Assembly: GCF_907164915.1 (NCBI RefSeq)
Contig: NC_061863.1
Location: forward strand, 26,331,710 to 26,395,709
Source: Impatiens glandulifera
Taxonomy: Eukaryota > Streptophyta > Magnoliopsida > Ericales > Balsaminaceae
DNA: 64,000 nt
Direction: 5' to 3'
Shown: one piece after another, positions 5,649-39,708 of the stretch
Position numbering within the stretch: position 1 is the stretch's first letter
Layout: each line of letters starts with the position of its first letter
Made by a program: the position numbers and the translations under genes
The notes under the pieces: model-generated
Database searches by the model: none
Seen by the model: the letters and a program-made list of their open reading frames with translations, nothing else
Told to the model about the DNA's origin: nothing

Positions 5649-6961
5649 ATGGGTCTTTGTATCTCTAAAGGATCTGCAGAGATTTATGTTGAAGATGATG
5701 ATTGTCAAGAACCTGTGGTTTCTTATGGCATCTCAAACTCTGTCTCATCTCTTTTTTCTCTTGAAGGCAACAAGGGAGTCAACCAAGATGCAGCCGTGCT
5801 CTTCCATGTAAGTGTAAACTTTCTTGGTTAATTGGTCCTTTTTGGGATCTTTTTTTGTTTGTAAACTTTGAGATTCAATATATTTCTATGACACGTGAAG
5901 GGTTACGGTACAGAAGATGTAACATTTTGTGCTGTGTATGATGGGCACGGAATGAATGGCCATCGTGTGAGCAAATTAGTCAGAAACCGCCTGTTGAAAC
6001 TGATGTTAAATCTGAAGAAGGAATTCGCGAAGAACAAAAATAGACCGAGTCATGTAAACGAGATAAAGATGTGGGAAGAGGCGTGTATGAGTGCTTTTAG
6101 GGTGATGGACAAGGAGATCAAACTTCTTACCAATTTTGATTGTTCTTTGAGTGGAACAACAGCAGTTGTTGTCCTAAGAAAGGTACTTACGATCTTCTGT
6201 TCAATGCTATCTTTTTCATTTGAGTTAAACAACACGAGACTGATGAATATTATGATGATATCTATGATCAGGGTGAACATCTTTTGATTGCGAATTTGGG
6301 TGATTCAAGAGCAATTCTCGGGACAATGAACAATGATGGAGAAATGGTTTCGGTACAGCTTACTACAGACCTAAAGCCTAGTGTACCAAGTAAGGGAAAT
6401 ATTTAAAGACATAAAATTATTGATATGTTAATTGTAACTAAAACCATGTTTGTTGCTAATGCCAGCCGAAGGAGACAGAATAAGGAGGAGCAACGGGCGG
6501 GTGTTGGCTTTGAGAGATGAACCGCATATCGATCGAGTATGGTTGCCTCATGAAGACAGTCCCGGCCTGGCTATGTCGAGATCCTTTGGTGATCTTCTTC
6601 TAAAGAACCACGGAATCATTTCCATCCCTGAGGTTTCTTTTCACCATTTGACATCTAAGGATCACTTCCTTTTTCTTGCCACTGATGGGGTATGTTATTA
6701 CATCTTATACTTAAATCTGTATTAGTTGTTTAGATATTTTTTTTTTAACAATTTCACATTTCTTAGGTGTGGGATGTGATGAGTAATGATGAAGTTGCAA
6801 CGATAGTGGCATCATCGGATACAGGCGCGAAAGCTGCGGAGAGTGTGGTTAACGCAGCGGTTTCAAATTGGAGACAGAAGTTCCCTTCTTCTAAAAGGGA
6901 TGATATCACTGCTATTTGCCTCTTCTTAGCAGACAAAACAAATGATACAATATCTTCATAA
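5649..6961 (+). CDS. Protein phosphatase 2C (PP2C), copy 1, five exons
   Basis: Predicted exons are 5649-5807, 5901-6182, 6272-6389, 6466-6689 and 6767-6961, all with GT-AG borders. They total 978 nt and encode 325 residues without an internal stop. The family removes phosphate from Ser/Thr using two metal ions. The metal-site motifs are present: the NQDA Asp at residue 47, DGHG at 67-70, GDSRA at 157-161, ATDGVWDV around 258-265 and RDD at 305-307. SGTTAVVVL lies in exon 2. The ATG was chosen because it gives MGLCISK, a typical N-myristoylation plus palmitoylation start, so membrane association is likely. The protein is shorter than many plant PP2Cs (about 350-430 residues), mainly in the N-terminal linker. 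It resembles the plant clade E PP2Cs, but orthology is not assigned. The paralogue at 34292-39708 has the same intron positions and phases. Confidence 0.92.
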
Positions 6962-8595: not shown

Positions 8596-9961
8596 TGTTG
8601 GGATTGGTATTGGCAATAGAGACTAGAGTCTGACTATTGTGAACGGCTTACGATAAACTCTTCGATAATAATCATGTGAGGGATTAATATTTATTTCTAT
8701 TCTTAGCAAATCCTACAAACTTTTGAAACAGATTCAAGTGCATAATTGTTCGTTGGATTTAAAGCTTTAGACAACTGAATGCAAATGGAAGAAAGTAAAG
8801 AACATAAGGAGTTTTATGAATGTTCGGAGATAAAACTCCTACGTCACCCCTTCTTCCACAACCGAAAGGGTATCCACTAAAGACATTGAGTTAAATACAA
8901 CTCACTGATCTAGCTAACTCTATTGAACAGAAAAACCTCTGTTCAACTTACAACACTGATGTTTCTCACAGAAAAGACAGTATGTAATTACAATGTGATC
9001 ACTGCTAGATAATAAGAGATTTAGTGTGTATGTTAAATAAAGTATCTCAGACTTGTATGTTTTTAGACCAGTAGTTCGACCGTTGTCCTTGAGCTTCTAT
9101 ATAGTTGAAGTACACCAACGGTCGAATATTCTTTGTGGACACGTGGCATGTATCCGTTGGACGACCTCCTATAGTACGAGAGTACAACACACTCTAAGGA
9201 TTTGAATCGTGGTCGTACCGAACAGGTACTGCGCCAAATATCTTCTGATCTTTCCTGTACTGGAAAGGTAATTGAGAGATATTCGTGTACGTGGTATTCA
9301 TTCATTTGATGGAATTATCTGGCTTGTCAGACTGTTGAAAGAAGTGGAGCATACAACTAAGTGATTGTGGTTAGACGGATGCTTCCTTCAGACAGCTACT
9401 AAAGTGAAGAATTAGACGTTCTTTTTTAGACCGCATCTAAAGGAGTTATACGTCCTCGTCTAACTACGCATTCCTTTATACAGCGTTTAAAGGAGTTAGA
9501 CTACCTCGTCTAACTACGTTTCCATTTAGACCGCGTCTACCTCGTCTAACTACGGTTTCCTTTAGATAGCGTCTAAAGGAGTTAAATGACCTCGTCTATC
9601 AACGTTTCCCTTTAGACAACGTCTAAAGGAGTTAGACTACCATGTCTAACTACGTTTCCATTTAGACAACGTCTAAAGGAGTTAACCTACATCGTCTAAC
9701 TATGTTTCTCTTTAGACATTGTCTAAAGGAGTTAGACTACCACGTCTAACTACGTTTCTCTTTAGACAGCGTCTAAAGGAGTTAGACGTCCTCGTCTAAC
9801 TAAATATTCCTTTAGACCGCGTCTAAAGGAGTTAGACTTCCTCGTCTAACTACATAAGACGTCTAAGACTACCTACTTCAGACCGTGTCTGAAGTAGCAA
9901 TGTCTTTTAGATTTGCACCTGCACAAAACCAAATAGACAACTTAACTTGATCATATCAACA
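8596..9961 (-). mobile_element. Solo LTR of a Sirevirus-like Copia family
   Basis: On the minus strand it begins TGTTGATATGATCAAG and ends CCCAACA. It aligns along its length with the LTR at about 56640-58690. In particular, the GGAAGAAGGGGTGAC.TAGGAG block and the 22 bases before the LTR end line up without gaps. It is about 1366 bp, against about 2050 bp for the other copy; the difference lies mostly in the internal tandem array. No PBS or internal region adjoins it, so it is a solo LTR or truncated remnant. I could not find a matching 5-bp target duplication. Confidence 0.75.
9413..9860. repeat. 50-bp tandem array of TTTAGAC/GTCTAAA palindromes inside the solo LTR
   Basis: About eight to nine imperfect units of about 50 bp. 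Each contains TTTAGACaaCGTCTAAAGGA and GTTAGAC..cctCGTCTAAC, two inverted repeats sharing the core TTAGAC. 'GTCTAAAGG' recurs at about 9569, 9620, 9670, 9721, 9771 and 9822. The same core builds the longer array at 56762-57660. Confidence 0.85.
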
Positions 9962-10479: not shown

Positions 10480-13022
10480 ACAAACCGACCCTACCTGAAA
10501 TATATCAATCCAGATCTTCTGCTACCGATTTTCCTGTTCCCCCTGTTGCGGACCAATCAAAATGCAGGATTATTATTATATTAATAAATCAAAGTTGGGT
10601 TGAAAGAAGAGAGAGAACCTGGAACCCGGATTCAATTATGGGTTCAACACAAATGTCGTTAAACGGAATGTAGAGATATAGTATTGAGTGAAACATACTT
10701 CTCTCTAGGTGTCATGTAAAACAAAATGTAGAAATAGAGTATTGAGTGAAGCATACTTCTCTCTAGGCGCCATGTAAAAAGTGAAGCATACTTCACTTCA
10801 ATTAGTTAATATGCCTAGAGGTTCATGTAAAACCTCCAACACATCAATGTAAAGATATTTTAGCGTTTATGTAAAAACATTTATTCATTAATATATGTAA
10901 ACCCAATGGAGAATGTGGAGAGACTGATTTCAGTGAAGCATACTTCACTCCAAACGCCATGTAAAACGGAAGTGAAGCATTCTTCACTTTAAGCGCCATG
11001 TAAAACGGAAGTGAAGCGTACTTCACTTTAAGCGATATATAAAAAAGAAGTGAAGCATACTTCGCTCCAAGCGCCATGTAAAACGGAAGTGAAGCATACT
11101 TCACTTCAAGCGCCATATAAAATAGAAGTGAAGCATACTTCTCTCCAGGTGCCATGTAAAACAGAATGTAGAGATACAATATTGAGTGAAGCATACTTTT
11201 CTCTAGGCGCCATGTAAAAAGTGAAGCATACTTCACTTCAATTAGTTTATATGCCTAGAGATTCATGTAAAACCTCCAACAAATCAATGTAAAAGACATT
11301 TTAGCGTTCATGTAAAAACAGTTATTCATTCATGTATGTAAACTCATTAGAGAATGTGGAGAGGTTGTTTTTAGTTAAGCATACTTCACTCCAAGCGTCA
11401 TGTATAACGGAAGTGAAGCATACTTCACTTTAAGCGCCATATAAAGCGGAAGTGAAACATACTTCACTTTAAGCGATATATAAAACAGAAGTGAAGCATA
11501 CTTCACTTTAAGCGCCATGTAAAAGGGAAGTGAAGCATACTTCACTTTAAGCGACATATAAAACAGAAGTGAAACATACTTCGCTCCAAGCGCCATGTAA
11601 AACGAAAGTGAAGCATACTTCACTTCAAGCGCCATGTAAAACTGAAGTGAAGCATACTTCTCTCCAGGTGCCATGTAAAACAGAATGTATAGATACAATA
11701 TTGAGTGAAGCATACTTCTCTCCAGGCTCCATGTAAAAAGTGAAGCATACTTCACTTCATTTAGTTTATATGCCTAGAGGTTCATGTAAAACCTCCAATA
11801 AATCAATGTAAAGACATTTTAGCGGTCATGTAAAAACAGTTATTCATTCATGTATGTAAACTCATTGGAGAATGTGGAGAGACTGTTTTTAGTTAAACAT
11901 ACTTCACTCCAAGCACCATGTATAACGGAAGTGAAACATACTTTACTTTAAGCGCCATATAAAACGGAAGTGAAGCATACTTCACTTTAAGCGACATATA
12001 AAACAAAAGTAAAACATACTTCACTTTAAGCGCCACGTAAAACGGAAGTGAATCATACTTCACTTTAAGGGACATATAAAATAGAAGTGAAGCATACTTC
12101 GCTCAAAGCGCCATGTAAAACGGAAGTGAAGCATACTTCACTTCAAGCGCCATGTAAAATAGAAGTGAAGCATACTTCACTTCAATTAGTTTATATGCCT
12201 AGAGGTTCATGTAAAACCTACAACACATCAATGTAAAGATATTTTAGCGTTCATGTAAAAACATTTATTCATTCATGTATGTAAATCCATTGGAGAATGT
12301 TGAGAAACTGTTTTCAGTGAAGCATACTTCACTCCAAGCGCGATGTAAAACGGAAGTGAAACATACTTCACTTTAAGCAACATATAAAACAGAAGTGAAG
12401 CATACTTCGCTTCAAACGCAATGTAAAATGGAAGTGAAGCATACTTCACTTCAATCGCACATATTAAGGTATAAAACAAATTTTCCCGCTGCAAATTCTT
12501 TTATAATAATATATATATATAGAAAACCTAATATCATTTTATATTATAAAAATTGCCTTCCAATTCATCTCTCTCTTTCTTCAAGTTTCTGCCTCCTTTC
12601 ATGGCGATTCGAATCCGGTTCCCCGTCTACCAGAATTTTTTTGTCAAGAAGATCAAAAATCAGTCTAAAAAATGGTACGTACACCAAAATCGTTAAGTTA
12701 TCTTTGTATTTTTGAAATCCTAGGATTACGTACGCACAATGAGGTCGTTATTTCATTCATATTTAGGAAACCCTACTCCGAAAATGTCATGTTCAATGAA
12801 AATCTTTCGTATTTAGGAAAACCTACTTAGAGTTAGGTTTAATTACGGTTTTGTATATTATTTCCGCGAAACCCTAGTTACTGATGTAGGAAAAACTTAT
12901 TTTTGTTATTAACGAAACATATTTTTTGAATGTGTAGGTAACAAATAATGAAATCGTCCCAAACACTATAGGCAAAGAATGAATTTTTTGCCTCAGTTAA
13001 ATATCTATTGAAGATAAAGTAT
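10480..13022 (+). repeat. Left terminal inverted arm
   Basis: An outer unique segment (about 10500-10680) is followed by 39-bp tandem arrays (to about 12465). An inner unique segment (12470-13022) includes GTACACCAAAATCGTTAAG, GGATTACGTACGCACAATGAGG and TCTATTGAAGATAAAGTAT. Every part has an inverted counterpart in 19705-21815. Homology stops abruptly at about 13022, exactly where the OTU fragment begins. Confidence 0.85.
10680..12465. repeat. 39-bp palindromic tandem arrays with higher-order units (left arm)
   Basis: The 39-bp unit contains AGTGAAGCATACTTCACT, a near-perfect palindrome, followed by a linker such as TTAAGCGCCATGTAAAACG. Blocks of these units are separated by a longer spacer with 'atgcctagaggttcatgtaaaacct' and 'gagaatgtggagag'. 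The spacer recurs at about 10811, 11250, 11771 and 12195, giving higher-order units of 420-520 bp. The repetitive frames on the minus strand (for example 10844-11236 and 11375-11755, 13-residue repeats of the KYASLPFYMALKV type) stay open only because 39 is divisible by three. Confidence 0.9.
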
Positions 13023-14006
13023 ACAACATCCAAACCACAAGATGTGATTTGTATGGACAAGTGAATGTTTGGTTATGTATTTGACAAGCAGGAAGGCTCA
13101 GGGGGTGTATTATTGATATCATCCTCAAGGTTCTTTTTTGGTAGGAAAAGAACTATCAAGAGAGAGTGATGTTGATTTATGATGGACTACACTATGATGC
13201 TTTGGTTGTATGCTCTCTCTCTATATATATATATATATGTATATATTTATATGACTAGCACTATCTTCCCCTCCCATAATGGGAAAATATGTGCGCGCTT
13301 GTAATTATTGGACTGGATCAACATATATCAATGTCACCCGCTGAAGGAGCACCAGAGGAGTTTGATCAGACAATATTTCTAGTTGATAAGGATAGAACAA
13401 TTGGAGAAGTTGAAAAGTTGGCTCTGAATTTTGTCAAAGAACAACAAAGGTAATGGATTAAGTTTGACAGAAAGAAGCATTGTGTTATTGATCATTATTG
13501 AATGTTGTTCCTATAAAAGTGCAATATATATTTGCTGACCTCGAGCTGGTAAGAACATAACGTTTCAAATGCTTATCCTCTAGGGAGGCCTAGTTGGTGT
13601 GGTATTTTTGACCTACTTGATCTAATTGATTTGATTGATCTGTCGAGCTTGGTTAATGATTGGAGTGATAAAATTATAAATAGGTTTGGTTTGGTCTGGT
13701 CTGGTTTAATATTTGGTGTTAGCTAGCATGCATGGTAAGTAATCCACTCGATGAGTAACTTGTGTAGGAAAAGAAGTTTCACCAACACGGCCAACTTCAC
13801 TTTGTGATGTGGGGTTTGCCAGATTGGAGTCATTGGCCAAAAGGTAATTTACCTGTCCATTATTATTTTCAAAGGTAGTCTCCAAAATAAGAAAAGTCAT
13901 AATGTGGATTCTCTTGTGGTAGTGGATGTGGAAATAAATTAAAATATAGGAGGCTGTGGACCATGCACAGGCAACAGGACATGCGAATTTTCAAGAATAC
14001 AAGTGA
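13023..14006 (+). pseudogene. OTU2: Captured OTU-family deubiquitinase fragment (OTU2/YOD1-like)
   Basis: Pieces in gene order: IQTTRCDLYGQV (about 13025-13065), MLIYDGLHYDALVV (about 13165-13210), MSPAEGAPEEFDQTIF to VKEQQR (13331-13450), RSFTNTANFTL (13768-13843, continuing GVCQIGVIGQK), and EAVDHAQATGHANFQEYK with a stop (13950-14006). These match the C-terminal half of plant OTU2/YOD1-type cysteine proteases, which cleave ubiquitin chains. They include the catalytic-His segment (LHYDAL) and the C-terminal zinc-finger helix. Introns with AG/GT borders separate the last pieces, so genomic DNA rather than cDNA was captured. An in-frame TGA at 13805-13807 replaces an expected Arg codon, and the N-terminal half with the catalytic Cys is absent. 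Not functional as seen. Confidence 0.85.
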
Positions 14007-14927
14007 TGATGATATGTTAAACAAGAAAGAAAAAAACTTACATTTTAATTTATATGAGACCAATTAAGAAGTAGTAGCATGTAGAAACAGTTTGATCTCA
14101 AATTATTTGGTTTGGTTTGGTTGGGGGGATTTGTTGTATCATTGGAGGGTTTAGATAAATTGTATCATTGCCCATTGAATTGTATTTTGTTGTCATGATA
14201 ATAATAATGACCATTTTCACCCATACATACAGATTGAGATCAGCTCAGACTTCTTCTTGATCCAATAATAGGGCTTTACTTGTAGTAGTATAAGGACCAT
14301 TTTAGGTTCTCTGTTTGGATGGATGCTCCCAAGCCCACAACATTCTCTATTGTTTTTTTTAGGGTAGAAAACTCACAAATTTTATTACACAAGATGCAAG
14401 ATTAGATGAACAAGCATTTCATGCGCAGTTTGATTGCATATGCTTTTGTGAGATTGTCTTGAAGAGAAGTATTTTACCTTTATTATTAGAAAATGATAAT
14501 GTAGTGTGATCCTTGGATGAAAGGTTTGTACGAGGAGTAAAATGGCATGTGAATAATAAATAATAAATGCCTTGATAGAAATGTAGTCTCATTCTTAGGT
14601 ACTTTTCTCACCCCCAAAATAAATGTATCCATAATAATAATAATCGGCCAGTCATTAATCAATCTTATAATAATAACAATCAATTGTTTTACTCGTACAT
14701 CCATACAAAATTATCTATAGAATTTTTCACCTTTTCTATTATTAACTAAAAGACATGCAGACTCCTATCGACCCAATAATAGGTCATATTTCTTACAGAC
14801 TTATGGATGCAATATATATATTTTACCCCCAAAACAACACAAATTTTGGACTTCTCATCCTCCTCAATAGCAGCAAGCAATTGCTAAACTGCAGGGGAGG
14901 GTATTTTTCTTCATTTCTAGATAGTTA
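14007..14927. other. Spacer between the two captured fragments
   Basis: The first few hundred bases are probably the 3' untranslated and downstream sequence of the OTU fragment. The rest has no recognisable gene. The two fragments converge on this interval, their 3' ends facing each other. Confidence 0.45.
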
Positions 14928-17900
14928 GTTGTCTTTGCAGTTTCTGGAGTATCTAGAGGACAATCGAGACTGTGACGTATGAAAGAACTCAAAGGGTGTC
15001 CCCGACCCTAGAGATCTTCTTGTGGTATTTGGAGAATTTGACAGCAGCGGTTCATAAACTGGGTTTCTGTTGTTCTTCGCCTATGACATTATTATACTCA
15101 AAGGTGTCATATCTTTCTCATTTGCTGCTCTTCCCTGAGGAACCTCTATTATACTTCCAAGGGACAATATCGACCCTCCTAACCTCTCTGCCTGCTGAAG
15201 AACATTAATCTTACTCGGTCTTTATGTGTATCTTAAATACTTCAACGCAAGTATTGAATCCATTCCTGCTCTAACTATCAGCTGAAATATTCCCCCGATC
15301 ATCTTATAACTTCAATAATAATAATATTATATATTTTAACAAAATGACCCTTTAATCATTTCCAAGACTTACCCCAATGCTTATCCAATAAGATGGATGT
15401 CTACACAGGAGGAACATTATGGTATACATCCCCGACGAAGGAATAGCACTAACAATCCAGTTTATCACATAGAACCCAACAAGATTTCCCCATACCGCCA
15501 AATGTTGCAACGTTGTGAAGGAGCTACCAAAGCAAAATTATTCAATCATCATTACAAGATTAAATAACTAATTATCTTCTGTTCAAAATGAAATAAAAAA
15601 GTAACTCAGGTCCATATAATAACTTACATGGTCTCTATTGCAACTACAAAAGCCTGTAGCCAAATACACCCATATAGTGCCACCATTGACACTTCCTCCA
15701 TTTTGCTTCTTTCAGAAGCATAAGCATGCAACGTAATCACAAAAACCACATCCTGTTTAGAAAAACAAGAGCTTGTTTAATAAGGCTGGTAAAGAATTAT
15801 CATAGAAGTATAAAAAAGGAACGGATAGACATAATGTTCTATTTCCAAAATGGTATTTATGACACTATCCATAATATTTTGCTTTGTTTAAGAAACCTGA
15901 GGAGCAGCAGATGTTAACCAAATGAACTTTTAGTCTTGGTGTGTACAAATTATATTTATCCGCAAAATACAACAATACATCATAAAAACTGATCATATCT
16001 TACAGTGAATGAGTTTAGACCATTTGGAAACACTTCGTGGAGCTGGAACTGTGTCTTAGTTTGGATTTGGATGGAAAACATTAACAAATTTGTGAATATA
16101 TGCCTAATTAAGTAATGTTTCATAACATTAACTCATCTAAATCAAAATCCGGACAAGACCTTAACAAAATCAACATTTCCAAGGAAATTTATCTACACAT
16201 TTTCGTCCAACCTCATACCCAACCAACTCCAGATCAAGCTCCAGAAAGGCAAAAGTGTTTCCCAATGGGCAAAAATCTACGACCCTAATTGATTAAGAAT
16301 TACAAAGTTCTTCAAAACAGTAACTAAAAAGCAATTAATTAAGGATGTAATCCCTATTACAGTTATGGATCACAATTAGTTATTAGCACCAAAGCTAATC
16401 TTCTTCTAATTAGTTAAGGACATACTCTCTTATCACTATAACTTGTTTCAGATTTCTTATCAGGCAATAATTCCTGGCTTCCTATATTAATACATCAAAA
16501 AATATCTGAAAGCTCCCAAAAGAAATAGAATAAGTAAATTGTATTAGGTCCATCTTAGCTAGAAAATGTACACCTATATATCCATGACTTTAACAATAGA
16601 AGCTCCCTGGTTAATTGATATGATATGATGGGGACTGTGTAACTGAGGTACATAACATAGATTTACTACACCTTCAAATTGCTTACATCATTTAGAAATA
16701 CCATGAATGCTTTCTTTCATCATCAATACTACTATGCAATGCAAAACAGCACCTCCAACTCCTTACTAACAATGCTTGACATGTAAGCCTATCTTTATAG
16801 CCTCACACCACAATAATTGCACTAAAATGTTAAGTATCCCAATTCTGAAGGCATTATATGTGCAGATGCATCAGATTTACTTCCACAAAGATGAAACAAA
16901 TTCATCCTCAATCAGTTTCCTTTCAGTTAACAAAAAAGGATTATAAATTCACGTCCCAAATAAGAATTTCCCTAAGCATAAATGACAAGAAGATGGTAAG
17001 AGCGTAGCAGAGATTAGCTGCAAAACTGATATGGAAAACAATTATATGTTCTCAAGACCATACTCTAGGTTCCGAATTTGTTATTCTCATTATAAGAAAC
17101 ACTCTCTCTAAGCTTCTACAAACTTCATCTTCAGTCTTGCCATTAATTAAAAGAAGCTTGCCTTTGGGTTCTGCAAACAAGAAAGGAAGACAAGAAGCGT
17201 CCTGTTATTATAGTAGATAACAAGATGTAGAACGCAAAGAGTTCCCTGAAATTTAGTTGCATATATTCCCACAAAATTATATATACATGATTTTTTGCAA
17301 TATTCAGCTTATACAACATATTAAGCACAGGATATGAGCAATCCCGAATTCAAACATACATTAAAACAAATAGCAATGTAGATATATTCTATCTAACTCA
17401 TGATCCTCATTTTGAAAATTAATTGCGCATATTTTTGATCAGTCGATATAATGAGTATTGACGTCATAATGAAATATCAAAGATGTCACTGGTTATTTTG
17501 GTAGTTGATTAAAAATAAACTAAAATGACTAGATCCACAAAGAGGGAAAAATGAAAACAAAGATAAACTAGCTTTCTTTGATTCCCCACAGATATTGAGG
17601 ACAATCTCAACCTGTAATTTTGTTTATCAGCATGAAAAAACAAGTCACTATAGGTGGTTGTAGTCACAGATTCAAATAATAATACCTTCATTACAACTAG
17701 ATTATTTTTCTTTTCACATATTTCTTACCTGTTTTTCTTTATAACATTTAAAAGAAAAGGTCTGAAACGTATGAAAAAAAAGAATCCAGCTGTAATGAAG
17801 GTATTACTACGTGAAACAAAGTCATCCGCCGACATGTTTCTTAACTTATTTTGAAGACCTTCCTAATCAGCAATAGAACATAGTATCTGAAGTGTTGATT

Positions 17901-19130
17901 TCTTGATATTTCATGGTTTCCCATATTTAGTTTTTGTTTGTTTGTTTGAGAAAAGTCCATTCATAGAATGACAAAGAGGTCGTTTAAGCATAACGACTTA
18001 AGCATATCTTGAAAGTTGAGGGAAATAAAAATATTTACGAAATAGTTTTCATAATTAGTGGACCTTATTTAATAGATAATTATAAAATTTCATGTCATAT
18101 ACTCCTTTTTCCAGCTCAAAATTGAGTAACCTTAAAGTTTGTGTCCAAGTTATATATTGCATCGACTCCTCAAGCATTGTCTATCAAGATAATATACCTG
18201 CAGACTATACACAATATTATTACATTTTGGACTACTTCTGTTCTTCTATTTGATATAAAAAGATAAAGAGTCTTAGTAGCACAAAGAAGTCAGCAGGCAA
18301 TAAGAAACCTCACGGGGTCAAGGCTCAAGTTCTCATGCAGATGAATGTTTTTGAATAAAAATAAACTTCAACTTGGAACATGGCATTATATAGGGAGTAT
18401 TCTTCGTGTCTCCAGTTAACTTAATCATCTAACCTGGGGAAACAAAATTGCATGAAAGAGCAATTTGTATAGTAATATTCTACTTATATCCAGTTAGCAT
18501 CCAAAAATTTATCCCAGCTTTCCTGAGTGTCTCAATTGTCTCTGGTACGCCATCCTGGAAAGGCAGATAAATATGAATGAAGATATATCCAGTTATGTCT
18601 AGATCACATTAGGCAAACAAGGAATACATAGATACTAAGATAAATGATGTTAAATGTCAAATGTGTAATTTCAGATACCTGTAGATGATCTTCTATTGCA
18701 GCAACCCCAAGGATTTCAAAGTTCTTCTCTAATCTTTGCAGACTTCATCCACTTTCCACTACACGAAGCAGCAAAATAAATTATCAGCAAGAAACATACA
18801 ATTTATGTAGACATATAAAGATATATGTTTACATTTGATAAAAAAAATATGAAATAGAAGAAGGAAGAAAAATAAATGAAAGTTGTAGTGAGTATACTTA
18901 CTTCCCTATCTACCAATGAACTATTTGCTTCTTTAAAAATCAAAGACCATTCGATGTATTCATCTTATTCTAGTTCACGCCAAGCCAGGCATAATGTTCT
19001 TAGTCCTTGTTGTGCATAATGTTCAACAGCTTCAGCAAAATTTCGTGTTTGTTGCCCTGTCATTTGTTCTGGTGTAGGATGCACAAGAACATGGATAACA
19101 TCCATATTAATGTGTTTCATGATGTTATAG
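14928..19130 (-). pseudogene. ALA2: Captured P4-ATPase (phospholipid flippase) fragment, ALA2-like
   Basis: Minus-strand exon pieces from high to low coordinate: HYAQQGLRTLCLAWRELE (about 19130-18900), LEKNFEILGVAAIEDHLQ (18767-18682), DGVPETIETLRKAGINFWML (18556-18481), AEPKGKLLLINGKTEDE (17170-17095), a membrane-segment piece with MVALYGCIWLQAFVV (15712-15633), LAVWGNLVGFYVIN to SSGMYTIMFLLCRHPSYW (15545-15374), and the C-terminus with INVLQQAERLGG and NPVYEPLLSNSPN (15253-14928). The order and spacing match plant ALA2, which moves phospholipids across membranes. The phosphorylation-site half and the segment around the hinge GDGGND box are missing. There is a TAA at 18965-18967, a one-base frameshift near 18750 and a TAA at 15222-15224. 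A broken gene copy. Confidence 0.88.
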
Positions 19131-19704
19131 GCTATATCAAAATCCCATAAAAGGCCACAATATTCGGGTGGTATAGCTTCGAGAGAATATTAGCTACAGT
19201 CCAGAATTCTGTTGTCTGTTAACAACTATGGAATGGTTAGTATACAAATATCAATCTTCCTGATTAAACAGACTTAAGAACAAAGATAAATACTTTAAAG
19301 ACAAAATTTGATCCTAAATTTACATAGGGATGAGAAGCATAACTCTGTCTGTTTTTACAATATATTTTTTAACGAGTGTGAGCCGACATTGTACTTGTTA
19401 AAAATACGAGAAGATTATTTAAAGTTTTACCTGCTTAACATCACATACGGCTTCATATAGACACTTTGAGGAGACGATTAAAAACATAAAAGAAGATGAA
19501 CACTCTCTTATAGATATGGTTTACCTGAATTTACAAAAATAAGACAAAAACTCGACGAGCAATTTCTAACAGAGAAATCGCATATGTACAACAACGAATC
19601 GCTACACACTTCAGGAGATCCAATGTTGCATTAACATCATCCCAAAGACCACAAAGAACCTTCGACGCCACCCCCATCAAATGTCATTTTGCAAGAAGAT
19701 TGTA

Positions 19705-21815
19705 GAGGAGAATACTTTATCTTCAATAGATAATTGATTGGGGCAAAAAAATCATTCTTTTCTTATAGTGTTTGGGACGATTTCGTTGTTTGTTGCCTTC
19801 ACATTCAAAAAATATGCTTCGTTAATAACAAAAAAAAGTTTTTCCTACATCAGTAACTAAGGTTTCGTGGAAATAATATAGAAAACTGTAATTAAACCTA
19901 ACTCTAAGTAAGTTTTCCTAAAAACGAAGGATTTTCATTGAACGTGACATTTTCGGAGTAGGGTTTCCTAAATATGAACGAAATAATAACCTCATTGTGC
20001 ATACGTAATCCTAGGGTTTCATAAATACAAAGAAAACTTAATGATTTTGGTGTACGTATCATTTTTTAGACAGATTTTCGATCTTCTTGACAAAAAAATT
20101 TTTGATAGACGGGGAGCCGGATTCGAATCGCCATGAAAGGAGGCAGAAGCTTGAAGAGAGGGAGATGAATCAGAAGGAAGTTTTTATAATATAAAATGAT
20201 ATTAGGGTTCATATATATATATATATATTATAAAAGAATTTGCAGCGAGAAAATTTGTTTTATACCTTAATATGTGCGCTTGAAGTGAAGTATGATTCAC
20301 TTCCATTTTACATGGAGCTTGGAGCGAACTATGCTTCACTTTTGTTTTATATGTCGCTTAAAGTGAAGTATGCTTCACTTCTGTTTTACATGGCGCTTAA
20401 AGTGAAGTATGCTTCACTTCCGTTTCACATGGTGCTTGGAGTGAAGTATGCTTCACTGAAAACAGTCTCTCCACATTCTCCAATGGGTTTACATACATGA
20501 ATGAAAAAATGTTTTTACATGAACGCTAAAATGTCTTTATATTGATGTGTTGGAGGTTTTATATGAACCTCTAGGCATATAAAGTAATTGAAGTGAAGTA
20601 TGCTTCACTTCTGTTTTACATGGCGCTTGAAGTGAAGTATGTTTCACTTCTATTTTACATGACGCTTGAAGTGAAGTATGTTTCACTTCCGTTTTACATG
20701 GCGCTTGGAGCGAAGTATGCTCCACTTCTGTTTTATATGTCGCTTGAAGTGAAGTATGCTTCACTTCCATTTTACATGGCGCTTGGAGCGAAGTATGCTT
20801 CACTTCTGTTTTATATGTCGCTTAAAGTGAAGTATGTTTCACTTCCGTTTTACATGGAGCTTAAAGTGAAGTATGCTTCACTTCCGTTTTACATGGCGTT
20901 TGGAGTGAAGTATGCTTCACTGAAAACAGTCTCTCCACATTCTCCAATGGGTTTACATACATGAATAAATAACTATTTTTACATGAACGCTAAAATTTCT
21001 TTACATTGATATGTTGGAGGTTTTACATGAACATCTAGGCATATAAACTAATTGAAGTGAAGTATGCTTCACTTTTTACATGGCGCCTGAAGAGAAGTAT
21101 GCTTCACTCAATATTGTGTGTCTATATTCGGTTTTACATGGCACCTGGAGAGAAGTATGCTTCACTTCTGTTTTACATGGCGCTTGAATTTAAGTATGCT
21201 TCACTTCCGTTTTACATGGTGCTTGGAGCGAAGTATGCTTCACTTCTGTTTTATATGTCGCTTAAAGTGAAGTATGCTTCACTTCCGTTTTACATGGCGC
21301 TTAAAGTGAAGTATGTTTCACTTCCGTTTTACATGACGCTTGGAGTGAAGGATGTTTTACTTAAAACAGCCTCTCCACATTCTCCAATGGGTTTACATAC
21401 ATGAATGAATAAATGTATTTATATGAACGCTAAAATGTCTTTACATTGATGTGTTGAAGGTTTTACATGAACCTTAGGCATATAAACTAATTGAAATGAA
21501 GTATGTTTCATTTTTTACATGGCGCCTGGAGAGAAGTATGCTTCACTCAATATTGTATCTCTACATTCTTTTTTACATGGCACCTGGAGAGAAGTATGCT
21601 TCACTCAATACTGTATTTCTACAATCCGTTGAACGACGTTATTGCTGAACCCAGAATTGAATCTGGGTTCCGGGTTCTCTCTTCCTTTTAACCCAACTTT
21701 GATTTATTAATATAATAATAATTCTGCATTTTGATTGGTCCGCAATAGGGGAACAGGAAAATCGATAGCAGAAGATCTGGTTTGGAAATATAGTCGTTAG
21801 CCGGTCAATAGGTCT
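19705..21815 (-). repeat. Right terminal inverted arm
   Basis: Inverted counterpart of 10480-13022: the same outer block, 39-bp arrays and inner block in reverse order. It is shorter because it has fewer array units. Homology ends at about 19705 with the reverse complement of TCTATTGAAGATAAAGTAT. The next bases are unrelated to the left arm, so the captured DNA lies exactly between the arms. Confidence 0.85.
20275..21640. repeat. 39-bp palindromic tandem arrays (right arm)
   Basis: The same unit as the left arm, now reading AGTGAAGTATGCTTCACT on the + strand, with spacer blocks at about 20470-20590, 20935-21050 and 21370-21490. The open frames here (20240-20500, 20593-20964, 21057-21404) are repeat-generated. 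Confidence 0.9.
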
Positions 21816-34291: not shown

Positions 34292-37200
34292 ATGGGGCTT
34301 TGCATCTCAAAATGGTCTGCAGATCATCATAAATATAGGGTTAATGACCATGATGATTGCCAGGAAATTGTGCTTTTCGACGATGGGGACAACCCCATTG
34401 ATGGAATCTCATCAAGCTCTGGCTCATCTCTTTGTTCTCGTGAAGGCAGCAAGGGAGTGAATCAAGATGCGGCTGTGATCTACAAAGTAATTAAGCCTAA
34501 CCCATCATATATGGTTTATTGGTTTGTCCTTTTTGGATCAAATTTTGTAACATTGGTTTGATTTATGTTTATATATGATAATTGTGAGTTTAAGCTTGAT
34601 TGTCAGAAAATATAAAGTTGTAGGCCTTTATTGATGTTAGTGTATATAATATAATAATATATTATATTGATATATTATTATATTATACAATATAATATAT
34701 TATATTATTATATTGTCTTTTATACCATTAGGGTATATTTAATTATTAATGGGCTTGGGCCTGTATGTATAAGCAATTTAGGGTTTTAGGCTAATTACTC
34801 CTATATAAGGATTGGTTGTAAATGTTGAATAGACAACACTCAAGGTTTTTCAAGACTTTTTCTTCTTTAGCAAATATTTATTTTCCAGAGTTTCATATCT
34901 TCATAGTTGTTCTTAGAAAGATCCAATAGTCAAAGCCAACATTTGGTATCAGAGCTAGATTGAAGAACATGTCGTCGACAAGATCAACCAGAGATGCGGC
35001 GGCAATGAAGATTGGAAGAGAAGGAAATGTGACGCTCTCCTATCCGTTACTCACGAAGAGTAACTACTCGGTTTGGGCATTGAAGATGCGGGTAAACTTA
35101 CAAGCACAAGGAGTGTGGGAAGCCGTGATGCTCGAAGATGTCGACGAACGGATGGATAGAATGGCTCTCGCCGCCATCTATCAAGCACTCCCTGAGGACG
35201 TCCTTCTCATGGTGGCTGAGAAGGATTCCGCCAAGCTAGCGTGGGAGACGCTAAAGACAATGCATGTTGGAGTGGAGAGAGTTAAGGAGGCAAAAGTGCA
35301 AACCTTGAAGACACAATTTGAGGCGATTCGTATGAAGAATGGGGAATCGGTGGATGATTTCGCCATGAAATTGACATCCATTGTGACTGGTATCCGCTCG
35401 TTAGGAGAGAGGGTGAAGGAGATCTCCGTCGTCAAGAAGTTCCTTAGAGCCTTACCACAAACATACATGCAGATCGTTACAGCGATCGAGCAATTTGGTG
35501 ACCTCAAGAATATGACCGTCGAAGAGATCGTCGGTCGTCTCAAAGTCCACGAGGAGAGACTTCGCGGATACGGAGACCAAGAGGAGGAGCATCTATTGCT
35601 CACGCATGATGAATGGATGTCACGAATGAAGAAAAACGGAGAAGCCGATTTTTCTTCTGGATCATCGAGTCGTAGCGGCAACGGTGGAGATAACCGAGGT
35701 CGTGGCAAAGGGCAAGGGCAAGGTCAAGGGCGAGGTTGTGCAGAAAGCTCACCTCGACAAGAAGGTACCAAGCCCCGCAAAGACAAGAGCACAGTGAAGT
35801 GTTACGCTTGTCAAAAGTATGGGCACTACGCGTCTAAGTGCCCTAACAATAGGTCTGACGGTGAGGCAAACCTCACTAGCTTCTATGATGAGGAGCCATC
35901 ATTAATGTTTGCTGAGGTAGTGACAAAAGCTTTGCCCGAAGAAGATGATGCAAACCTCGCTAGCTTCTATGACGAGGAGCCAGTATTAATGTTTGCTGAG
36001 GGAGACGAGAAGACAAACCTTGAAGAGTTCATGCAAGATTCGTCCAAGGAGGAACCAGATGTGGTGTTGTTCAGTGAAGAGAAAGTCATGGAGAAACTCC
36101 TCGCAAGTGGCGATGAGTGTAATCACACTGATGTGTGGTACCTTGACAATGGAGCAAACAACCATATGAAGGGCCATCGAGAGAAGCTCAATGAGCTCGA
36201 CGAGAAAATTACCGGAAATGTGAAGTTCGAAGACGGAAGCAAGGCACACAAGTTTCCTAATTCATCTTACGGGGAAATCTATGTGAGCAGAGACGCTATA
36301 TTAGATGAAGAGAAGAAGTGGGAGTGGTGCAACAACAATAACAAGCTCGTACAAAATCCCGTGGAGTTCGGAATCCTACGAGATGTCTATGTGGAGGCAC
36401 CACTAGTAGAGATGGATCCTGAAGAATTGTTGTTGCTCACCACCGATGAGCCAACAACATATCACGAGGCGGTAATCGAAGAGTCGTGGAATGAAACCAT
36501 GAACAAAGAGCTCGAGTCTATCAGGAAGAATAAGACATGGGAGTTCACTGACTTACCACCCGGTCACAAAACCATTGAGTTAAAGTGGCTTTTCAAGTTG
36601 AAAAGAGACAGCGAAGGCAACATCCTCAAGCACAAAGCGAGATTGAAAGCAAAAGGCTATGTGCAGAAGCAATGCAATGATTTTGAGGAGAACTTTGCAC
36701 TGGTGGCGAAACATTACACAGTCAGGTTAATACTTGGTATCGAGGTGGACCAGAAGAAATATAGCATTAAGGTAAAGCAGGAAGCTTATGCGAAACATGT
36801 GTTGAAACAGTTTGTAATGGAGTATTGTAACTCGAGCAAGTATCCTATGGAAGCAAAGTTGCAGCTCGGAAAGGATGTGGAAGGAAGCTTAGTGGATCCG
36901 AAGGAGTATTGGTGTATCATCGGGTGTCTCAGGTACTTGACACACACTCGACCGAATATCTCTTATGTAGTTGACATAGCGAGTCGATACATGGAGAAGC
37001 TTGCCACTCTACACCAACAGGCAGTAAAAGACATTCTTCGTTACGTGAAGGGAACGATGAATTATGGGATTCAGTTAAGAAGAGGACGAGAAGTTGAAGA
37101 ACTCGTTGGTTTTACTGACAGTGACCTAGCCGGTGACACAGATGACAGAAAAAGTACTGGAGGGATGGTGTTTTATCTCAACGGGAATCTGATCACGTGG

Positions 37201-39708
37201 CAATCTCAGAAACAACGAACTGTTGTTTTATCTTCATGTGAGACGGAGTTTATGGTAGCTACTGCAGCGTCGTGCCAAAGACTTTGGCTAAGAAACTTGT
37301 TGAGCGAGGTGCTCGGATGCGAGCTGAGGCCGGTAACCCTCTATGTCGACAACAAGTCTGCAATAGAATTAATGAAGAACCCGGTGTTTCATGGACGCAG
37401 AAAACACATCGACATTCGGTTCCACTTCATCCGTAAATGCGTCAAGAATCAACAGATCGTTGTAGAGTTTGTAGGCACTAGAGAGCAGCGTGCAGACATT
37501 CTCACTAAGGCACTAGCAATAGTCAAATTTGTAGAGATGCGAGAGATGCTCGGCGTGAAGTATCTCGAACCAAATCAAGCTTACGGGGGAGATTGTGAGT
37601 TTAAGCTTGATTGTCAGAAAATATAAAGTTGTAGGCCTTTATTGATGTTAGTGTATATAATATAATAATATATTATATTGATATATTATTATATTATACA
37701 ATATAATATATTATATTATTATATTGTCTTTTATACCATTAGGGTATATTTAATTATTAATGGGCTTGGGCCTGTATGTATAAGCAATTTAGGGTTTTAG
37801 GCTAATTACTCCTATATAAGGATTGGTTGTAAATGTTGAATAGACAACACTCAAGGTTTTTCAAGACTTTTTCTTCTTTAGCAAATATCTATTTTCCAGA
37901 GTTTCATATCTTCATAGTTGTTCTTAGAAAGATCCAATAGTCAAAGCCAACAATAATTACTAACAAGGTCTATGGAGGAAAGGAAGATGTCACCTTTTGT
38001 GGCGTGTTTGATGGGCATGGAACAAATGGTCATTTAGTGAGCAAATTTGTCAGGAATTACCTGATGAATTTTCTTCTAGATCAGAAGATCATAGCCTTGA
38101 AGAACAAAAGAAGCTCGAAAAAGGCATGTATAAGCGCTTTCAAGGTGATTGATGAGAAGATCAGACATTTTGAGAACATGGATTGTTCTTTGAGTGGAAC
38201 AACAGCAGTAATTGTCCTAAGACAGGTAATTATGTTAATATTTCATAGTTTTGGATTTATGAAAGGATTTTTTTTCCTGCAGTCAATGAATGAAGATCAT
38301 GTTCTTGATCATAGTTTTTCATTTATGATAATCTGATTAGGGCGACAATCTTATGATTGCTAATTTGGGTGACTCGAGAGCAGTCTTGGGGGTCATGAAT
38401 TATGATGGAGAAATCACGGCCGTTCAACTTACAACAGACCTAAAGCCTAGTGTTACAAGTAAGGATGGTTTGATCAGGGTTTTCTTTTTTTGCAAATAAA
38501 CTGAAATTTTGTACACATACAAAGAAAATTATTTAGGTTATTAATTGGGTTCGAATGATATATCCATATATTTCAAAGAATTAATAGAACTTTAGTTAAT
38601 GATTTTATAGAAGACCTTGCAAATGAAACCCAATTAAACAACATTAAGCAAGAGATTGGATCCAATGGTCCATTTGCAAAACACTTTTTATATGTAGATA
38701 TTAGTTTGTTTGAGAAAATGCCAATAAATGCATGTCTTATTAAGGTATGTTGCAAAAGTAAAAACATTATTTCATCTATATTTATATATATTTGGATTGA
38801 AATTTTCACAAAAAAAAACATGTTTATAAATAAAATTCCCTATAATTTCTCATTCAACACAGATTTAAACCTAGAAGGTTTTTCTAAAAAATATTCGAGC
38901 CCATTTGTAAATATTTTTTTGAAAGTAAATTGAGTTTGAATTTAAACGAGAAAAAATTGATAAATTTATACATATATGTTAATTATGTTAAATTTCATAA
39001 AAGTATCTAAGTTATTCAACATCCAAATTAGATGAAATGCAAATAATTTGATTCATATTTACTCTTTTAAACTCAGCTTCAGCTCCAAAAAAGTGTTTCA
39101 AAATGAATATATTTTATTTATTAAAGCCCCTTGATGTTGATTTCTTTTTGGTGCATCGGCCAGCCGAACGAAAGAGAATAAAAAGAAGAAATGGTCGGGT
39201 ATTGGCTTTGTTACACGAGCCACACATCGAGCGGGTATGGTTGCCCCAACAAAATATACCAGGTTTGGCCATGACAAGATCCTTTGGTGATTTTCTTGTA
39301 AAGAATCATGGCATTATTTCCATCCCTGAGGTTTCTTTCCATCACTTGACCTCTAAGGATCAATTCCTTATCATTGCCACAGATGGGGTAAGTTATTATA
39401 TATAATATTTTCTTCTTCTTTATGACTTGTTTCTTATAATTAATTATTTTAGCTAGTCATAACTGTTTAGTTTTTGCATTTTTAATCTCAAAATTTCTTT
39501 ATAGGTGTGGGACGTGTTGAATAACGATGAAGTTGCGACGATAGTAGCATCAACCGATACAAAAGTCACAGCAGCAGAGGCATTAGTGAATGCAGCGGTT
39601 TCAAAGTGGGGAGAAAAACACCCTTCCTCTAACAGGGATGATTGCACTGCTCTTATCCTCTCATTGCATACAAACCTAGCAACCAAAACAAATGTTTCAT
39701 CTTCATAA
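34292..39708 (+). CDS. Protein phosphatase 2C (PP2C), copy 2, five exons, Copia insertion in intron 1
   Basis: Predicted exons are 34292-34486, 37968-38225, 38341-38458, 39164-39387 and 39505-39708, with GT-AG borders. They total 999 nt and encode 332 residues without stops. Exons 3 and 4 have exactly the lengths of copy 1 (118 and 224 nt). Metal-binding motifs are kept: VNQDAAV at the end of exon 1, DGHG at residues 80-83, GDSRA around 161-165, ATDGV at the exon 4/5 join, and RDDCTAL near the C-terminus. It starts MGLCISKW, again a myristoylation/palmitoylation signal. Intron 1 is 3481 bp, of which 3375 is the inserted retrotransposon plus one duplicated target site; without it the intron would be 106 bp. 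Intron 3 is also long (705 bp against 76 in copy 1). Splice sites are intact, so the gene may still work. Expression cannot be judged here. Confidence 0.9.
34583..34941 (+). repeat. 5' LTR of Copia B
   Basis: 359 bp. It contains a strongly AT-rich U3 (alternating TATAAT motifs) and a likely TATA box, CTATATAAGG, at about 34801-34810. The downstream 130 bases would be R/U5. Confidence 0.95.
34944..34955 (+). promoter_or_regulatory. Copia B primer-binding site
   Basis: TGGTATCAGAGC lies two bases after the 5' LTR. It is a perfect initiator Met-tRNA complement. Confidence 0.93.
34969..37626 (+). CDS. Intact 885-residue Gag-Pol derivative lacking integrase and RT active site
   Basis: The ATG at 34969 follows the PBS; the stop lies inside the 3' LTR. 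Order of parts: Gag (UBN2-type, about residues 20-200, with NYSVWALKMRVNLQAQGVWE), a Gly/Arg-rich linker, and a CCHC knuckle CYACQKYGHYASKC (278-291). Two copies of an acidic LTSFYDEEPSLMFAE-type repeat follow, then a protease start VWYLDNGANNHM (about 389-400). The frame then jumps directly to a post-integrase segment and to the RT N-terminus (TWEFTDLPPGHKTIELKW, about 525-545). The RT palm with YVDD is absent. RNase H (about 650-860) is complete in outline: TDSDLAGDTDDRKSTGG, ETEFMVA, YVDNKSAIELMKNP and RADILTKAL. The usual full length is about 1300 residues. The deletions are in frame, so a protein can be made, but it cannot integrate or polymerise alone. Confidence 0.93.
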   Translation: MSSTRSTRDAAAMKIGREGNVTLSYPLLTKSNYSVWALKMRVNLQAQGVWEAVMLEDVDERMDRMALAAIYQALPEDVLLMVAEKDSAKLAWETLKTMHVGVERVKEAKVQTLKTQFEAIRMKNGESVDDFAMKLTSIVTGIRSLGERVKEISVVKKFLRALPQTYMQIVTAIEQFGDLKNMTVEEIVGRLKVHEERLRGYGDQEEEHLLLTHDEWMSRMKKNGEADFSSGSSSRSGNGGDNRGRGKGQGQGQGRGCAESSPRQEGTKPRKDKSTVKCYACQKYGHYASKCPNNRSDGEANLTSFYDEEPSLMFAEVVTKALPEEDDANLASFYDEEPVLMFAEGDEKTNLEEFMQDSSKEEPDVVLFSEEKVMEKLLASGDECNHTDVWYLDNGANNHMKGHREKLNELDEKITGNVKFEDGSKAHKFPNSSYGEIYVSRDAILDEEKKWEWCNNNNKLVQNPVEFGILRDVYVEAPLVEMDPEELLLLTTDEPTTYHEAVIEESWNETMNKELESIRKNKTWEFTDLPPGHKTIELKWLFKLKRDSEGNILKHKARLKAKGYVQKQCNDFEENFALVAKHYTVRLILGIEVDQKKYSIKVKQEAYAKHVLKQFVMEYCNSSKYPMEAKLQLGKDVEGSLVDPKEYWCIIGCLRYLTHTRPNISYVVDIASRYMEKLATLHQQAVKDILRYVKGTMNYGIQLRRGREVEELVGFTDSDLAGDTDDRKSTGGMVFYLNGNLITWQSQKQRTVVLSSCETEFMVATAASCQRLWLRNLLSEVLGCELRPVTLYVDNKSAIELMKNPVFHGRRKHIDIRFHFIRKCVKNQQIVVEFVGTREQRADILTKALAIVKFVEMREMLGVKYLEPNQAYGGDCEFKLDCQKI
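37584..37593 (+). promoter_or_regulatory. Copia B polypurine tract
   Basis: The purine run CGGGGGAGAT immediately precedes the 3' LTR start TGTGAG. It is the expected primer for plus-strand DNA synthesis. Confidence 0.85.
37594..37952 (+). repeat. 3' LTR of Copia B
   Basis: 359 bp, same as 34583-34941 except for a T/C change near position 297 of the LTR. It includes the last 11 codons of the element ORF at its start. Confidence 0.95.

What the first reader, a model, noticed from the sequence alone, without database searches (positions are those of the whole stretch)
10480..21815. Large inverted-repeat element that captured two unrelated genes, with introns, in convergent orientation
More than 2 kb of inverted arms enclose an OTU2-like fragment on + and an ALA2-like fragment on -, and arm homology stops exactly at the captured DNA on both sides. 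Gene capture by Mutator-like elements is known, but arms made mostly of short palindromic tandem repeats together with two partial host genes is an unusual architecture. No transposase or clear target duplication is visible, so the superfamily is open.
Basis: partly seen in the sequence, partly recalled or inferred. Interest (0 to 1): 0.9.

Follow-up and report, generated by a model that had tools for sequence, protein, structure and literature searches.

The report
Foldback transposon that captured neighbouring genes
This is a plant DNA transposon with long repeat-filled inverted ends that picked up, in one piece, the tail halves of two genes lying next to each other and then spread that cargo to at least six places in the Himalayan balsam genome.

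Summary
Real and mobile. The window lies in the Impatiens glandulifera assembly. The family has at least 41 arm ends there. I examined 12 paired elements: of 7 with both tips nearly whole, 4 have perfect 9-bp duplications, 2 have 8 of 9, 1 has none. That fits a foldback-type, non-autonomous Mutator-like (Pack-MULE) element.

The 'two unrelated genes' are one capture. OTU2 and ALA2 are tail-to-tail neighbours on contig C6, and the cargo is a collinear copy of C6:187363-196147, introns included, with one 2.6-kb internal deletion. At least six loci carry the cargo; the four I read differ by 4-5% from each other and about 6% from the parent, so capture was followed by a burst.

Other members hold different host genes: a methyltransferase and a plasma-membrane H+-ATPase. 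The two arms are separate lineages (one split, 99/99). Both cargo genes are decayed. The transposase was not identified. A new member of a known kind, well resolved.

The parts
10497..10505 (.). left copy of the 9-bp target duplication, GAAATATAT
   Evidence: abuts the BLAST-defined arm end; 8 of 9 match with 21785-21793
10506..10686 (+). outer unique terminal inverted repeat, arm B (CAATCCAGATCTTCTGCTACCG...)
   Evidence: several genomic copies begin at query position 27 = 10506
10687..12455 (+). arm B repeat field: 33 palindromic cores in a 39-bp unit, with four copies of a spacer between blocks
12456..13022 (+). arm B inner leader: TATA-like stretch 12540-12552, ATG 12601, possible splice donor at 12675, possible acceptor ending 12937; found in both arms of 9 of 12 paired elements, in part in one arm of E6 and E11, not in E3
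   Evidence: promoter role inferred
13018..15750 (+). cargo part 1, collinear with C6:196147-193353 (OTU2 3' half, intergenic DNA, ALA2 3' end)
13022..14006 (+). OTU2 fragment, residues ~91-208 with natural stop 14004-14006 and four introns; premature TGA in exon 13766-13843
14007..14924 (.). intergenic DNA between the two convergent genes, collinear with C6
14925..15750 (-). ALA2 C-terminal exons (residues 906-1107) with natural stop 14925-14927
15736..15750 (.). junction of the internal deletion of C6:~190783-193353 (ALA2 residues ~695-905), short shared sequence ACAAAA
15736..19152 (-). cargo part 2, collinear with C6:190783-187363 (ALA2 residues ~538-694 and introns)
17671..17815 (.). MITE-like imperfect palindrome inside an ALA2 intron
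19153..19218 (-). short piece of unknown origin, weakly kinase-like; not from the C6 segment
   Evidence: Pfam PF07714 E 0.0094, below cut-off, for 19135-19218
19398..19711 (-). block beside one arm in E0, E2, E5, E7, E8, E9, E10 (about 150 bp of it in E4): family's own DNA
19712..20258 (-). arm A inner leader, same kind as arm B's but from a separate lineage
20259..21605 (-). arm A repeat field: 25 palindromic cores
21606..21784 (-). outer unique terminal inverted repeat, arm A
21785..21793 (.). right copy of the target duplication, GAAATATAG

Best explanation
A non-autonomous, foldback-type Mutator-like element (Pack-MULE) of an Impatiens glandulifera family. Shown: long inverted arms of palindromic tandem repeats, 9-bp target duplications in several members, one contiguous DNA-level capture of the convergent ALA2/OTU2 3' halves from C6 with an internal deletion, and presence of that cargo at six loci. 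Inferred: a Mutator-type transposase supplied in trans binds the repeated arm sites and moves the element; capture came from template switching or gap repair across short shared sequences; the leader at the inner end of both arms starts inward transcription, which now runs over dead gene pieces and may yield only non-coding or small RNA.
For: Exact arm limits abut a 9-bp repeat: chance 3.85e-4 for random position pairs, 1.3e-3 if AT-matched, 0.016 if length and limits may vary; 69 of 200,000 in a second draw. Perfect 9-bp repeats in E1, E3, E4, E6 and 8 of 9 in E9. Parent locus found and collinear, with no arm sequence in it. Cargo divergence between four copies K2P 0.044-0.054, to parent 0.056-0.061. 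Mutator-type transposase domain PF10551 abundant in the genome: 150 of 2920 candidates scored, all 150 over the cut-off. Other members carry other genes.
Against: No transposase in this element: its inside is the C6 copy plus 559 bp. In other members 16 of the ORFs listed were scanned against Pfam and none gave a Mutator-type domain; the rest were only looked at. None of the listed PF10551 places lies within a listed arm pair (compared by eye). Termini CAA..TTG are not the G-rich ends I recall for many plant MULEs. This element's own duplication has one mismatch. E2 has both tips but no target duplication. No expression data.
Confidence: 0.87

Rival explanations
1. Two independent captures of unrelated genes that happen to sit tail to tail in the element.
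For: In 7 of 7 other species that I picked by eye from two capped lists (those with one assembly or shared locus tags; others left out), OTU2 and ALA2 are not neighbours: six on contigs of different length, Nyssa on one contig but 347 tags apart.
Against: In this genome both genes are neighbours on C6 and the cargo is collinear across both and the DNA between them.
Confidence: 0.02
2. Foldback element of another superfamily (hAT or P) with repeated long ends.
For: This copy alone could be read as an exact 8-bp duplication, GAAATATA; Drosophila Galileo is a P-type element with foldback-like ends (abstracts in the listing).
Against: Four other members have perfect 9-bp repeats, one of them 10 of 10 if the first base of the end is counted.
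Confidence: 0.09
3. Not a transposon: an inverted segmental duplication around a local OTU2/ALA2 pseudogene pair.
For: Arms are long, and E7/E8 do look like an inverted duplicated pair elsewhere.
Against: Same structure at several loci with different flanks and own target duplications; the parent sits on another contig and shows no arm sequence in 12.9 kb.
Confidence: 0.02

Closest known systems
Pack-MULEs and tandem-TIR MULEs of tomato and Arabidopsis (PMC3310237; abstract, part 1 of the results and passages read)
   Same: Mostly non-autonomous, long terminal inverted repeats, a target duplication, a host gene fragment in some, multiplied after capture, ends that can be doubled
   Different: Arms here are 2-2.5 kb of 39-bp palindromic repeats; cargo is the 3' halves of a convergent neighbour pair; arms form two separate lineages
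Ssk-FB4 of Drosophila, called a foldback Pack-MULE (PMC8277862; passages read)
   Same: Foldback element with repetitive arms that captured a host gene, then spread; 9-10 bp target duplications
   Different: About 0.7-kb arms, one nearly complete and expressed gene; here two truncated, decayed genes
Tm1 of root-knot nematodes (PMC3169594; passages read)
   Same: Mutator/foldback family: composite ends with tandem repeats, 9-bp target duplications, differing inner loads
   Different: Repeats of about 14 bp, asymmetric 7-bp tips, a putative transposase in some members
Muta1 of Aedes aegypti (PMC5225508; passages read)
   Same: Ends made of subterminal tandem repeats, 8 or 9 bp target duplications, derivatives with foreign inner DNA
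   Different: 145-bp ends with 12-bp repeats; active transposase known
MuTAnT and FARE1 (PMC4486113 passages read; FARE paper not held, known only as cited there)
   Same: Plant MULE-type foldbacks with modular or palindromic ends
   Different: MuTAnT is small and targets TA runs; whether FARE members carry captured genes was not checked

Membership tests
Mutator-like (MULE) superfamily | target duplication of about 9 bp | tested here: met
   12 paired elements examined: 4 perfect 9-bp (E1, E3, E4, E6), 2 with 8 of 9 (E0, E9), 2 with 7 of 9 by eye at gapped tips of one duplicated locus (E7, E8), 4 without: E2 (both tips present) and E5, E10, E11 (one tip missing)
Mutator-like (MULE) superfamily | long terminal inverted repeats | tested here: met
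   arms 2517 and 2073 bp
Mutator-like (MULE) superfamily | Mutator-type transposase encoded by the family | tested here: inconclusive
   none in this element; 16 ORFs of other members scanned, no Mutator domain; domain abundant in the genome but not within a listed arm pair; only part of the family was fetched
Pack-MULE | host gene fragments between the ends, from a locatable parent | tested here: met
   C6 parent, collinear
Pack-MULE | mobile after capture | tested here: met
   six loci with the cargo by two protein searches; four read in full
Foldback-type element | arms built of internal tandem repeats of varying number | tested here: met
   33 against 25 cores; repeat spans differ among members
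hAT superfamily | 8-bp target duplication | tested here: not met
   perfect 9-bp repeats in E1, E3, E4, E6
Helitron | no inverted arms, no target duplication | tested here: not met
   both present

The most novel reading that the evidence does not exclude
The family works as a two-sided expression trap with specialised ends: arm A (in all seven A-type leaders of the tree beside its 0.3-kb block, in one only part of it) and arm B have kept separate lineages, each carries an inward leader with TATA box and splice site, and captured genes come to lie in sense behind an arm, so the element repeatedly makes new fused transcripts from host gene tails.
Probability: 0.2. Interest if true: 0.65.

Novelty: new member of a known kind. 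Interest (0 to 1): 0.5.

Why it matters
It shows by parent, deletion and compared copies that a plant foldback-type MULE can lift a convergent gene-pair region in one step, keep its order and introns, and multiply it. That warns against reading two genes in one element as two captures. With parent, at least six copies and other cargos in one assembled genome, the steps of capture (short shared sequence, internal deletion, role of repetitive arms) can be tested directly. It also flags a gene-annotation problem: an I. glandulifera protein named OTU2-like (P0126) is a copia piece joined to a copy of this cargo.

Tried and rejected
Inverted pair 8670-9853 / 57521-58618 as a larger element: rejected; it reads as two members of one copia-type LTR with its own palindromic repeats (LTR reading from neighbouring frames and a primer-site-like stretch, by eye).

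Coding first exon in the arm leader: rejected. The 25-residue frame of arm B (MAIRIRFPVYQNFF...) is not kept: of 16 arms 11 show the ATG motif; of those, 6 stop after 22 codons, 3 earlier, and 2 stay open over the 30 codons looked at. A leader with a possible splice site remains (TGGTACGT in 6 of the 11).

Arm divergence as a clock of insertion: rejected; arms A and B were separate lineages before the copies spread.

OTU2 and ALA2 not neighbours, as judged from seven other species: true there, wrong here; dropped.

A longer kinase-like stretch beside ALA2: most of it is ALA2 intron of the C6 parent; only 19153-19218 remains unexplained.

Rfam: 0 matches. Two scans of viral contigs with arm motifs: 0. 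Pfam on ten other window ORFs: only DUF4283 and RVT_2. Pfam on ten ORFs of other members: copia gag twice and a weak PF20167 'putative plant transposon protein' (E 0.0014, below cut-off) downstream of a single arm at C2:30.50 Mb. P0126 as an allele of the window: rejected, 105 of 117 identical and on another contig.

Claim of print: I saw no plant foldback-type element with captured genes in the listings; these cover open-licence papers only, listings are capped, and the FARE paper was not held.
Full report
What the window is. Two PP2C-72 genes in the window (5.65-6.96 kb and 34.3-39.7 kb) match two Impatiens glandulifera proteins, P0241 and P0328 (for P0328 residues 1-66 are 66 of 66 identical). 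The genome search later gave the window's place as contig C2:26331710-26395709 of a 653.9-Mb assembly. C2 is 68,082,729 bases long and C1089 194,119, the same lengths as the contigs of P0241/P0328 and P0126 in the protein listings. I therefore take it as the I. glandulifera assembly.

The observation. The inverted arms are real. BLAST limits them to 10506 and 21784 outside; the inner ends are 13022 and 19712. Over 2067 gap-free aligned columns 1893 are identical (K2P 0.090), and the level is even: outer tip 0.905, repeat blocks 0.908-0.925, inner leader 0.920. The left arm has a further stretch (12082-12455) that the right lacks. An 18-base palindromic core sits in a 39-base unit: 33 in the left arm, 25 in the right, none elsewhere in the window at up to 3 mismatches.

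Target duplication. GAAATATAT (10497-10505) and GAAATATAG (21785-21793) abut the arm ends. Among 61 x 61 offset pairs outside the arms only two reach 8 of 9, and this is the one that abuts. Chance for random places is 3.85e-4 or 69 of 200,000, 1.3e-3 for AT-rich places, and 0.016 if length and limits are left free. On its own this is moderate. The family decides it.

The family. The outer 321 bases match 631 places in the genome, a lower bound; the first 41 rows listed, the window's own two among them, reach into the unique outer end, and several begin exactly at 10506. Perfect 9-bp duplications: E1 (C5:33.557 Mb), E3 (C2:31.795), E4 (C1:121.706), E6 (C4:42.897). Eight of nine: E0 (window) and E9 (C8:46.247). 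E7 and E8, an inverted duplicate pair with gaps in their tips, show 7 of 9 by eye. E5, E10 and E11 lack one tip. E2 has both tips but no duplication; its flanks are inverted copies of each other.

The cargo and its parent. Before the genome search answered, the cargo read as the 3' half of OTU2 on + (residues about 91-208, natural stop, four introns) and the 3' half of ALA2 on - (residues 538-694 and 906-1107, natural stop). In seven of seven other species that I could compare from two capped lists the two genes are not neighbours, which spoke for two captures. The genome overturned that. An OTU2 gene with every part from residue 1 to 208 lies at C6:195321-198299 (-), and an ALA2 gene at C6:176819-194173 (+), seen in pieces from residue 42 to the stop in a capped list: tail-to-tail neighbours. 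The cargo, 6.1 kb, is collinear with C6:196147-187363 in two blocks: window 13018-15750 and 15736-19152. Between them 2.6 kb of the parent (C6:190783-193353) is missing, with ACAAAA shared at the joint. That explains the absent ALA2 residues 695-905. The four copies read share this absence, and no match to those residues is listed at any of the six places (42 of 188 candidates scored). At the OTU2 edge the arm end AAAGTAT meets parent AGCATAC, again a short shared stretch. No arm sequence is found in the 12.9 kb of parent read.

Copies. OTU2 and ALA2 searches both place the cargo at six loci besides C6: C2 (window), C1:80.94, C5:36.33, C8:46.25, C8:47.80 and C1089. Four were read. Over about 4.06 kb they differ by K2P 0.044-0.054 from each other and 0.056-0.061 from the parent; the branch shared by the copies is short (0.002) and the order within is unresolved. 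E9 and E10 share a 0.33-kb absence (C6:188808-189135). With Ks 0.25 at 26.16 My between I. glandulifera and I. noli-tangere (PMC12598466, passages), that is about 4.8e-9 per site and year, my arithmetic puts the spread at about 5 My and the capture at about 6 My; this is rough. P0126, annotated OTU2-like, is the C1089 copy joined to a copia end; of 120 homologues, 117 have a readable position before YDIQ, 116 of them with A and only P0126 with V, as at the window's arm/cargo joint.

State of the genes. The OTU2 piece lacks the N-terminal part, which holds the catalytic Cys by recall, and carries a TGA in exon 13766-13843 where the parent has CGA. The ALA2 piece lacks the N-terminal half and has in-frame stops and MLTGYK where homologues have MLTGDK. 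Stops differ among copies. I infer no working protein.

Other cargos. E1 holds a stretch matching PF02636, a methyltransferase family (E 8.4e-17). E7 and E4 hold plasma-membrane H+-ATPase parts (best PDB match 5ksd, E 2.2e-64 and 2.3e-41); E8 has the same by eye, with only a sub-cut-off Pfam match (E 0.0058). Each lies in sense behind the nearest arm by my reading; these are few events and prove nothing.

Arms. Sixteen inner leaders split into two groups (one split, 99/99): those beside the 0.3-kb block (arm A: E0, E5, E9, E10 on the ALA2 side, E2_L, E4_R, E7_L) and the rest (arm B, including both arms of E1). The window's two arms are thus old, separate lineages, and their 8% difference is no insertion clock. 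The leader is in both arms of 9 of 12 paired elements. It has a TATA-like stretch, an ATG in 11 of 16 and a splice-donor-like site in some, but no kept reading frame. Its promoter role is inferred, by analogy with MuDR, whose ends hold promoters for convergent genes (PMC3310237, passage).

Mechanism. Shown: end structure, target duplication, single collinear capture at DNA level, internal deletion, six cargo loci. Inferred: transposase in trans (PF10551 is abundant; none seen inside a listed arm pair), binding to repeated arm sites, and capture by template switching in repetitive arms as proposed for Ssk-FB4 (PMC8277862, passages).

Verdict. A foldback-type Pack-MULE, a new member of a known kind, with an unusually complete case history.

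Noticed in passing
8670-9853 and 56770-58618: Two inverted stretches, 66-72% alike in part, with another palindromic tandem repeat (GTTAGAC..GTCTAAC); they look like LTRs of a copia-type family, one of them beside a gag-like frame at 58855.
   Followed up: partly
34581-34941 and 37592-37952: Young copia-type insertion (LTRs 99.7% alike) with a long open frame, lying between exons of the second PP2C-72 gene (34292-34489 and 37965 on).
   Followed up: no
5649-6958 and 34292-39705: Two PP2C-72 genes in the same direction, matching P0241 and P0328 of I. glandulifera.
   Followed up: partly
17671-17815: MITE-like palindrome (AATAATACCTTCATTACA..TGTAATGAAGGTATTA) in an ALA2 intron; copies E9 and E10 lack the stretch from about 17389 to 17715.
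   Followed up: partly
G000:C4:25695000-25742800 (L019-L022): Elements E8 and E7 have mirror-image flanks (CGTACCTAATATTC / GAATATTAGGTACG): they look like an inverted duplication of about 13-14 kb carrying H+-ATPase pieces.
   Followed up: partly
G000:C4:33723000-33747100 (L010-L012): 23-kb member E2 whose flanks are inverted copies of each other (TATACATAATAAA / TTTATTATGTATA) and which holds copia-type frames; no target duplication.
   Followed up: partly
P0126, C1089:48127-59149: A protein annotated as OTU2-like is a copia end joined by prediction to a copy of this cargo: likely a false gene model.
   Followed up: partly
19153-19397: Piece of unknown origin between cargo and family block, with 22 residues weakly like a protein kinase.
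   Followed up: partly
860-1091: Another tandem array (39-bp unit, CACAAAGATCAAACGCAAGAG...), different in sequence from the arms.
   Followed up: no
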